Below, one piece after another: positions 30,932 through 33,829 of a DNA stretch of 64,000 nt. The DNA is from Scheffersomyces stipitis CBS 6054. Taxonomy: Eukaryota > Ascomycota > Pichiomycetes > Serinales > Debaryomycetaceae. A model generated the notes under the pieces. That model was not told where the DNA came from, did no database searches, and saw only the letters and a program-made list of their open reading frames with translations. Made by a program: the position numbers and the translations under genes. The stretch spans positions 1,178,001 through 1,242,000 of the forward strand of contig NC_009046.1 in assembly GCF_000209165.1 (NCBI RefSeq), in the 5' to 3' direction. Numbering within the stretch: position 1 is the stretch's first letter; each line of letters starts with the position of its first letter.

Positions 30932-31840
30932 TCGTTCTGATTGAGCTGGTCTCTTACAGAGTTAATAAATAACCTCCGTATATATCAATAATAATACTAT
31001 TTCTACTTTAAAATATCGCAAATTGGATGTAGTTCCAGGTGCGGACAGTAACTTAAAAAACTCTAGAGCATTTGGCCAAGCGGCCTTCGGCTCCTTCGGA
31101 CTTCGAAATATGGAATGTTCAGATCATATCTAGGTTTTCCACCGGAGTAGAAATTCATCCGTATCATTTTTAAGATTCCCGTTGTCCAGCCTGCATGTTA
31201 ATATGCAGGGGATCGGAAAATTAGAACAGATACGGAATTACTTGATATAGGATAATTATCCGTTGGGGGATAATTCATTTAATAGGAAAGTGCTACTAAT
31301 TAAACTTAATTGTCATTCCTCAAGTAGTGTCTTCTGCTTGTATATCCTTTTGCACTCGTAACTTAGCCAATTGAACAATCTTGGTAAATATGTTTACTGG
31401 GTCTGGGTATCTGATTGAAGCACATCAGACATTCTTCAGAGCATCAGGAGGACCATTTTTGTTGTGTTTGTTATGTTATTGCTGTATTTCATCATGCCTT
31501 GCTAGTTACATCTTATCACAATTTAATTATTCATGTCTCTTGTGCATAATTATGGGACTCGTACAATTTCCCATCAGTTATCTGGTTTCTTTTCGAAAGG
31601 TCTACCACAAGTGTTACAGATTCCGTTCTTCTCATCATGACGGCGTAAGAGATACCAAGTAGTAAAGTGGGAAGAAGCAAACAAAACGATGCCAGTGAAA
31701 ACAAAATCCAGTACAGTTCTGTTCCTCATGGTAAAAATATTTAGAAATGCTTTTGTTTGTGTTTCCTTAAAATCAATTAGATTGAATCAGCTTTGTATTT
31801 ATGAGAGAATACAAATTTACGACTTTTTTTTACGAAATGT
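30932..31840. other. Intergenic region downstream of the transporter
   Basis: About 900 bp. A small GC-rich patch at 31073-31107 contains TGGCCAAGCGGC, which resembles a Pol III A-box, but no matching B-box or tRNA fold follows. The 93-codon frame at 31381-31662 begins at TTG and has no recognisable homology. Confidence 0.4.
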
Positions 31841-32025
31841 TTTTTTTAACGTAGTGTCATACGTTGAACGTACTAACCCACATAAACAATTTTTTTTTAA
31901 CGTAGTGGCATACATTGAACATACTAACCCATATAAACAGCTAGAAACTAGAGATAATTTTTTTTTTAACGTAGTGGCATACATTGAACATACTAACCCA
32001 TATAAACAGCTATAAACTAGAGATA
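31841..32025. repeat. Three tandem copies of a 50-69-bp unit containing poly-T and TACTAAC
   Basis: The units start with 7-10 T, then AACGTAGTG(G/T)CATAC and TTGAACRTACTAACCCA, then a TATAAACA-like stretch. They span about 31841-31889, 31890-31956 and 31957-32025. Copies 2 and 3 also share a tail CTA(G/T)AAACTAGAGATA and are nearly identical. TACTAAC falls at 31871-31877, 31922-31928 and 31991-31997; in copies 2 and 3 ACAG follows 12 nt later. It lies just upstream of the tRNA-Val region. Confidence 0.85.
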
Positions 32026-32043
32026 AAGGCCATTATCATCCAA

Positions 32044-32583: not shown

Positions 32584-32590
32584 AAGAAAT

Positions 32591-32664
32591 GGTTGCGTGG
32601 TCTAGTTGGTTATGGCATCTGCTTAACACGCAGAACGTCCCCAGTTCGATCCTGGGCGGAATCA
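32591..32664 (+). tRNA. tRNA-Val(AAC)
   Basis: A 74-nt tRNA with anticodon stem TCTGC/GCAGA, loop TTAACAC and anticodon AAC. The T arm is CCCAGTTCGATCCTGGG and the discriminator is A. There is no intron, and a T-run follows (32668-32673). The acceptor stem GGTTGCG/CGGAATC has an unusual G5:G68 opposition, whereas I would expect a normal pair at this position. Apart from that the tRNA is standard and likely functional. Confidence 0.95.
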
Positions 32665-32875
32665 TTCTTTTTTGCATTTTTCATCTTTAATTGTATTTCA
32701 AATTAATATGATTCTACGAGTTATTGTAACGACTATACCATGTATTAAAAATACTAAGTATTAAAATATCCATAGAAAAGGATTGACTCTTTTTTTGGGT
32801 TCACAAAATAGTATCACACTTTAATTATAGAATCAGCAACCGAAAGTTGAAGGAATCACAATGTACGAAAGAAAA

Positions 32876-32995
32876 TTAGACGATAACACATCTGTTTGGA
32901 GTACATCCACCGTTAGAAGCAGTGAAGCTCTTGTTGTCCTTATCACCAGCTGTTTGGTTCTTGAAAGAAGCGGTCGAAGTAGATTGAGCAGCCAT
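32876..32995 (-). CDS. Candidate a-factor mating-pheromone precursor (39 residues, CaaX box)
   Basis: A short gene read on the minus strand from ATG (CAT at 32993-32995) to TAA (32876-32878). The product begins MAAQSTSTAS, has a polar K/D/N-rich middle with D18-K-D-N21, and ends GGCTPNRC followed by V-I-V. The last four residues CVIV form a CaaX box (Cys36) for farnesylation, C-terminal trimming and methylation. Length (S. cerevisiae Mfa1/Mfa2 are 36 and 38), the S/T-rich start, the K/D-D-N element about 15 residues before the CaaX Cys, and the CaaX box are all features of a-factor precursors. A TATA box lies about 75 bp upstream and an Mcm1-type palindrome about 295 bp upstream. The mature peptide boundaries are not known; a cut after N21 or N28 would be possible. 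A different small prenylated protein cannot be excluded. Confidence 0.7.
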   Translation of the reverse strand: MAAQSTSTASFKNQTAGDKDNKSFTASNGGCTPNRCVIV

Positions 32996-33067: not shown

Positions 33068-33074
33068 TTATATA
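33068..33074 (-). promoter_or_regulatory. TATA box of the a-factor candidate
   Basis: Read on the minus strand this is TATATAA, 73-79 bp before the ATG at 32995. The 5' leader between them is AC-rich with a CAAACAAACAACAAC-like stretch, typical of well-expressed yeast genes. Confidence 0.6.
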
Positions 33075-33278
33075 CTCCTCCGGTTTCTTCGAGCTTAGAA
33101 GAGTCTACAAATATCCTGTTGATAATTTAGAAATTTTTTGCAATTACAGAATTGAAAGTATTCAGTTTGATTTATGTCTCAGTTACAATTTTCCTATTTG
33201 GGACTACACAAAGGATGATAACCAAGATCTCCACATTTTGCAATCTTATCTCGTAGCTTAAACAGGGGTCATGTCGAA

Positions 33279-33309: not shown

Positions 33310-33829
33310 ACCGAGAAAGAACGTGTTCCCCATTTATGTTTCATATTCGTGTTACCAAGGGCTTGAATCATCGTTTAACATCTCATCAACAGTTTTTCGC
33401 AGCCTTATTAATTGCCAATCTACACCATTAAGAGGAGACGTATGCAATTTAGGTTTCGTCAACTAAATGGTTAACGTGTCCTGGTTGTCTAATAATTCAA
33501 TTTCTGGAGTATCTCTGAGAGTTAGACTCAGCCTCTAATTCATTTTCCCTGTTCAATTACAAGTATAATCGGTAACCCTTACAAAAATATGTGCCCTTGC
33601 ACTCATTGCTTATCTACAAGGGTCTAATAGTCTCAGCTACCACTTCCAAGAAGAAGCGGTTAACTAATGACCTCTCCTGAATCCTTTGTTTTAATTTTGA
33701 CGAATTGCCCTAGTAGACTATGACACTGGCAACTACAACCCAACTTACCTTAAATTCGTTATTATTAAATGTAAACATATAGTACAGGTAGATGCAAGAA
33801 AAGATTACAAAATGGGTCGTTTCAGCGGA

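What the first reader, a model, noticed from the sequence alone, without database searches (positions are those of the whole stretch)
32876..32995. Unannotated 39-codon gene resembling an a-factor mating pheromone precursor
Seen: an ATG-to-TAA minus-strand frame of 39 codons, product starting MAAQSTSTAS and ending GGCTPNRC-VIV, with a CaaX box at Cys36. Known: a-factor precursors in yeasts are 30-45 residues, start with an S/T/K-rich pro-region and end in CaaX. S. cerevisiae has a KKDN element before the mature peptide, and here there is DKDN at the same relative place. Inference: this is the a-factor gene of this yeast. Genes this short are routinely missed, and a-factor sequences diverge so fast that homology searches often fail. 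The two cysteines (31 and 36) separated by TPNR are unusual and could be special to this pheromone.
Basis: partly seen in the sequence, partly recalled or inferred. Interest (0 to 1): 0.88.

Follow-up and report, generated by a model that had tools for sequence, protein, structure and literature searches.

The report
Yeast a-factor mating pheromone gene
This 39-codon gene most likely makes the lipid-tagged "a" mating pheromone of the xylose-fermenting yeast Scheffersomyces stipitis; it is the expected missing part of a well-known mating pathway rather than a new kind of thing.

Summary
In detail: window 32876-32995, minus strand, is a 39-codon ATG..TAA frame ending Cys-Val-Ile-Val. The CaaX end alone proves little: 2 such short frames in the window against a shuffled mean of 1.0. 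Two tests make it a real a-specific gene. (1) Its codon use is the most histone-like of 278 frames of 25-60 codons (0.609, next 0.401). (2) 197 bp before its ATG lies TTGT-N5-CCCAAATAGG; the same element, same spacing and orientation, lies 169 bp before STE2 and 180 bp before the STE6-like gene. The shared motif has 5 exact hits in 15.44 Mb, reversed control 0. Genes for STE3, a STE6-like exporter, RAM2, MATa1 and MATalpha1 are present. A 100% STE2 match names the species Scheffersomyces stipitis. Best reading: its a-factor gene. It is a new member of a known kind, possibly already listed in a survey not held here. Conservation in other species, expression and processing were not tested.

The parts
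32879..32995 (-). 39-codon coding frame of the a-factor precursor (stop codon 32876-32878)
   Evidence: translation; codon use rank 1 of 278 short frames
32876..32890 (-). CaaX box Cys-Val-Ile-Val and TAA stop
   Evidence: also listed as a CaaX-type DNA match at G000:C6:1210876-1210890
33193..33211 (-). a-specific-gene type operator TTGTGTAGTCCCAAATAGG: HMG-type half TTGT and Mcm1-type half CCCAAATAGG (33193-33202); which protein binds which half is inferred
   Evidence: exact motif shared with STE2 and STE6-like promoters; the only window site with 0 or 1 mismatch
33068..33074 (-). TATATAA, TATA-like box 79 bp before the ATG
33337..33343 (-). TGAAACA, like a Ste12-type pheromone response element (motif name recalled)
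   Evidence: also before STE2, STE3 and RAM2, not before the STE6-like gene or BET4; in 2 of 22 control promoters

Best explanation
This is the a-factor mating pheromone gene of Scheffersomyces stipitis. In cells that express MATa2, MATa2 with Mcm1 binds the operator at 33193-33211 and switches the gene on together with STE2 and STE6 (the shared sequence is shown; the binding is inferred). The 39-residue precursor is made at high level (inferred from codon use). By the known a-factor pathway it is then farnesylated on Cys36, loses VIV, is methylated, is trimmed at its N-terminus (perhaps after DKDN, leaving KSFTASNGGCTPNRC) and leaves through Ste6 to act on Ste3 of partner cells (all inferred; the STE3, STE6-like and RAM2 genes were found).
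For: Intact frame with CaaX end. Codon adaptation 0.609, rank 1 of 278 short frames in the window. Operator: motif TTGTNNNNNCNCAAAWRGG has 5 exact hits in 15.44 Mb, reversed control 0: STE2, the STE6-like gene, this gene and two others; distances to ATG 169, 180 and 197 bp, same orientation; STE3 and BET4 promoters have 4 and 5 mismatches. STE3, STE6-like exporter with a match to 7qkr, named as the exporter of a-factor, RAM2, MAT alpha1 and a1 homeodomain are in the genome. In print, S. stipitis has MATa1, MATa2 and MATalpha1 together (PMC6692504, passage) and MATa2 activates a-specific genes in C. albicans and Komagataella (PMC4850264; PMC5748462; passages).
Against: CaaX end alone is at chance level. 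Sequence likeness to S. cerevisiae Mfa1 is weak. No relative outside S. stipitis was found (the tool reaches only proteins sharing 5-residue words and short genes are often not annotated). Two of the five operator hits are not near a known mating gene. RAM2, expected to be a-specific, has only a two-mismatch version, which one unrelated promoter equals. I did not find MATa2 by Pfam. The motif left one position open that STE2 and STE6 share and this gene lacks, so it was not made blind to the candidate.
Confidence: 0.92

Rival explanations
1. A real, a-specific, prenylated small protein that is not the pheromone itself, for example a membrane-anchored mating accessory peptide.
For: The operator and codon use show an expressed gene of the a-specific set, not what the peptide does. 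The peptide has no family match and weak likeness to Mfa1.
Against: No other short CaaX frame of 25-60 codons was found in the 263,700 bases of loci held (overlaps included) or below the two other operator hits; S. stipitis is reported as homothallic with both MAT gene sets and has STE3 and a STE6-like exporter, so an a-factor gene is expected. The whole genome was not scanned for CaaX frames.
Confidence: 0.05
2. A chance open frame with a chance CaaX end.
For: Such frames occur about once per window by chance.
Against: Codon adaptation far above the other 277 short frames and an operator with 5 exact copies in the whole genome at the expected distance.
Confidence: 0.02

Closest known systems
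Saccharomyces cerevisiae MFA1/MFA2 a-factor precursors
   Same: Length (36-39 residues), S/T/K-rich N-terminal part, CVI-X end, KDN at residues 19-21 (S. cerevisiae sequence recalled; compared)
   Different: Mature part shows no clear likeness; extra Cys31 and CVIV in place of CVIA; positive-type operator with a TTGT half, whereas S. cerevisiae a-specific genes are repressed by MATalpha2 with Mcm1 (PMC2253631, passage)
Candida albicans MFA1 (Dignard et al. 2007)
   Same: Same CTG-Ser clade; a-specific genes activated by MATa2 (PMC4850264, passage)
   Different: Sequences not compared: the paper is not held and no copy was found in the protein library with this query
Other yeast a-factor genes in the survey of Srikant, Gaudet and Murray 2023
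   Same: Found there by CaaX filters rather than homology (described in PMC10569646, passage)
   Different: Survey not held; whether this gene is in it is unknown

Membership tests
Ascomycete yeast a-factor precursor (MFA) | Short precursor (about 30-60 residues) without signal peptide, ending in CaaX | tested here: met
   39 residues ending CVIV; no signal peptide predictor was run, the hydrophilic N-terminus is judged by eye
Ascomycete yeast a-factor precursor (MFA) | Expressed as an a-specific gene (shared operator with STE2 and STE6) | tested here: met
   At sequence level only; expression not tested
Ascomycete yeast a-factor precursor (MFA) | Genome has receptor Ste3, exporter Ste6 and CaaX prenyltransferase | tested here: met
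   beta subunit Ram1, proteases and methyltransferase not searched
Ascomycete yeast a-factor precursor (MFA) | Sequence likeness to known a-factor precursors | tested here: inconclusive
   Weak likeness to S. cerevisiae Mfa1, 85 of 5000 shuffles as high; no library hit but itself
Ascomycete yeast a-factor precursor (MFA) | Conserved frame and CaaX in close relatives | not testable with these tools
   No yeast genome DNA other than G000 could be searched; one search says G000 has no relatives here
Ascomycete yeast a-factor precursor (MFA) | Farnesylation, proteolysis, methylation, export by Ste6, activity on Ste3 | not testable with these tools
   Needs experiment
C. albicans-type a-specific operator (MATa2 with Mcm1) | HMG-type half site at fixed spacing from an Mcm1-type site, shared by a-specific genes | tested here: met
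   TTGT-N5-CNCAAAWRGG before STE2, STE6-like gene and candidate; RAM2 only with 2 mismatches; binding not tested

The most novel reading that the evidence does not exclude
The mature pheromone keeps both cysteines (GG-Cys-TPNR-Cys) and Cys31 carries a second modification, an acyl chain or a disulfide, beside the farnesyl on Cys36, giving a doubly anchored a-factor. In this primary homothallic species, where a and alpha functions may sit in one cell, the extra anchor could keep signalling local.
Probability: 0.07. Interest if true: 0.55.

Novelty: new member of a known kind. Interest (0 to 1): 0.33.

Why it matters
It names the a-pheromone of a biotechnologically used, primary homothallic yeast whose MAT locus is reported to carry a1, a2 and alpha1 together (PMC6692504), so mating control and self-signalling become testable there. 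It also shows a way to find a-factor genes that does not rest on homology: take the operator shared by STE2 and STE6 of the same genome and look for a well-coded CaaX frame below it. Beyond that it is the expected part of a known pathway.

Tried and rejected
CaaX end as proof: rejected, chance level. KKDN likeness as proof: weak. A second a-factor gene: the search with the peptide found one place; below the two other operator hits (C4:633254, C5:1242142) no CaaX frame was seen within 900 bp, and none of 25-60 codons elsewhere in the loci held. A CaaX-type DNA pattern gave 81 places genome-wide against 70 for the reversed control: uninformative, and those places were not examined. STE6: chosen among 25 ABC_membrane matches as an ORF of 1257 aa with P-glycoprotein relatives and a hit to 7qkr; two other long ABC ORFs (L049, L050) have no motif with 0 or 1 mismatch (L050 has one with 2) but were not searched against solved structures, and the rest of the ABC genes were not followed. 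The promoter scan read the minus-strand loci in the wrong orientation; I did not use those rows and redid three of the genes properly. MATa2: my reading of a possible HMG gene in the MAT locus has no Pfam HMG match, so for its presence I rely on PMC6692504. The bacterial promoter scan says nothing about a yeast.

Papers. Passages seen: PMC10569646, PMC2253631, PMC6692504, PMC4850264, PMC7243462, PMC5748462, PMC10694251, PMC13037118, PMC10182648, PMC5014548. Not held: PMC10592104 (Srikant, Gaudet and Murray 2023; title seen in reference lists, content recalled), PMC1828930, PMC2834264, PMC3429625. Paper searches: in the listed part (one search lists 20 of 42, 15 of 17, 25 of 60, 15 of 189) no title or shown abstract start names an S. 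stipitis a-factor. Of the 4 papers I saw passages of one only. So no claim is made that the gene is unpublished.

Full report
Observation. The frame is as described: window 32876-32995 minus, MAAQSTSTASFKNQTAGDKDNKSFTASNGGCTPNRCVIV and TAA. The window is bases 1178001-1242000 of contig C6 of an assembly of 15.44 Mb in 8 contigs, and the peptide search finds one place in it. The STE2 protein of this assembly is 100% identical over its length to a record named Scheffersomyces stipitis (P0002), so the species is S. stipitis; size and contig number fit strain CBS 6054 (recalled). The protein library holds the 39 residues from a contig of 1,677,372 bases, the contig length also given for that STE2 record; C6 here has 1,724,953 bases. 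By inference the frame is intact in a second assembly.

Is it more than chance? A CaaX-ended short frame is not: 2 in the window against a mean of 1.02 in 60 dinucleotide shuffles; with both middle residues V, I or L, 1 against 0.67. Codon use is the first strong sign. With four histone genes as reference (three H3, one H2B, a small and partly redundant set; the fifth fetched locus, a variant histone, was left out), the frame scores 0.609. The next best of 278 frames of 25-60 codons in the window scores 0.401, the median 0.158. The 14 frames of 300 or more codons score 0.176-0.484, and 3 of their 272 39-codon pieces reach 0.609.

Promoter. Reading upstream of STE2 and of the candidate I saw one element in both: STE2 CTTTGTAGTGTCCCAAAAGGG, candidate CTTTGTGTAGTCCCAAATAGG. 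Their shared pattern has 12 hits with up to 2 mismatches in the genome (reversed control 8): 2 exact, which are these two, none with one mismatch, 10 with two. As the pattern was made from these two, that alone is circular. The gene I take for STE6 (1257 aa, with matches to P-glycoproteins and to 7qkr, named as the exporter of a-factor) has TATTGTTGCCGCTCAAATAGG in the same register. The motif TTGTNNNNNCNCAAAWRGG, in essence what STE2 and STE6 share, has 5 exact hits in 15.44 Mb and none for the reversed control: STE2, STE6, the candidate and two others. Caveat: one G between the half sites is shared by STE2 and STE6 but not by the candidate, and I left it open, so the motif was not made blind to the candidate. 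With 3 hits outside the two source promoters, the candidate's included, a given 600-bp stretch read on one strand would hold one about 6 times in 100,000 (600 x 3 / 30.9 million; my arithmetic). In the window the candidate site is the only one with 0 or 1 mismatch; looser matches are at chance (62 found, 68.6 expected). From the element to the ATG there are 169 (STE2), 180 (STE6) and 197 bp (candidate), in the same orientation.

Controls. One search compared 44 promoters: the candidate, 5 named genes, and ORFs of 150 or more codons in the window and in ten fetched loci. Four have the motif exactly: the three above and one in a locus fetched because it had the motif (248 bp before a mannosyltransferase-like gene, named by eye). 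RAM2, an a-specific gene in C. albicans (recalled), has a two-mismatch version 416 bp upstream, which one other promoter (L050, fetched as an exporter candidate) equals. STE3, expected to be alpha-specific, and BET4 have 4 and 5 mismatches. The heptamer TGAAACA lies before the candidate, STE2, STE3 and RAM2 (twice), not before STE6 or BET4; 2 of 22 window promoters have it. The reading fits what is in print: MATa2 activates a-specific genes in C. albicans (PMC4850264, passage) and in Komagataella and other yeasts (PMC5748462, passages), and Mcm1 acts with it (PMC2253631, passages). That the TTGT half binds the HMG protein MATa2 and the CCCAAATAGG half binds Mcm1 is my inference.

Pathway. The genome has STE3, the a-factor receptor, STE2, RAM2, whose protein matches farnesyltransferase alpha subunits, and the exporter. 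The MAT locus holds an alpha1 gene and an a1 homeodomain beside PAP-, PIK- and OBP-like ORFs (named by eye). This agrees with the published S. stipitis locus with MATa1, MATa2 and MATalpha1 and its classing as primary homothallic (PMC6692504, passages). I did not find MATa2 by Pfam. RAM1, the CaaX proteases, the methyltransferase and AXL1 were not searched.

How it works, and what is inferred. a-Factor must be farnesylated, cleaved and methylated to be secreted and act, and the CVIA end is cut by Rce1 and Ste24 (PMC5014548, passages); it leaves by Ste6 and is read by Ste3 (PMC7243462, passages). By analogy this precursor is farnesylated on Cys36, loses VIV and is methylated. KDN stands at residues 19-21 both here and in S. 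cerevisiae Mfa1 (recalled), so a cut after it would leave KSFTASNGGCTPNRC. This is a guess: overall likeness is weak, 85 of 5000 shuffles with fixed ends score as high. Cys31 cannot be interpreted without relatives.

Verdict. It is best filed as the a-factor gene of S. stipitis, a new member of a known kind. A survey of yeast a-factor genes (Srikant, Gaudet and Murray 2023, not held) may already list it, so I make no claim that it is unpublished.

Noticed in passing
window 31839-32026: Three direct copies of a 51-69 bp unit (TTTTTTTTTAACGTAGTGGCATACATTGAACATACTAACCC..., the last two 99% alike) lie between an ORF end and a tRNA-Val gene at 32590-32665; perhaps a mobile-element remnant near a tRNA.
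   Followed up: partly
L063, G000:C5:1242142-1242160 (minus): An exact operator motif 248 bp before a protein mannosyltransferase-like ORF (named by eye): chance, or an unexpected a-specific gene.
   Followed up: partly
L062, G000:C4:633254-633272 (plus): An exact operator motif in a gap between two ORFs, about 970 bp before a 432-codon ORF of unknown kind; no CaaX frame below it.
   Followed up: partly
L060-L061 (G000:C7:695500-715499): MAT locus with an a1 homeodomain ORF and an alpha1 ORF together; no HMG-box MATa2 was recognised by Pfam in the reading I tried, though PMC6692504 reports the gene.
   Followed up: partly
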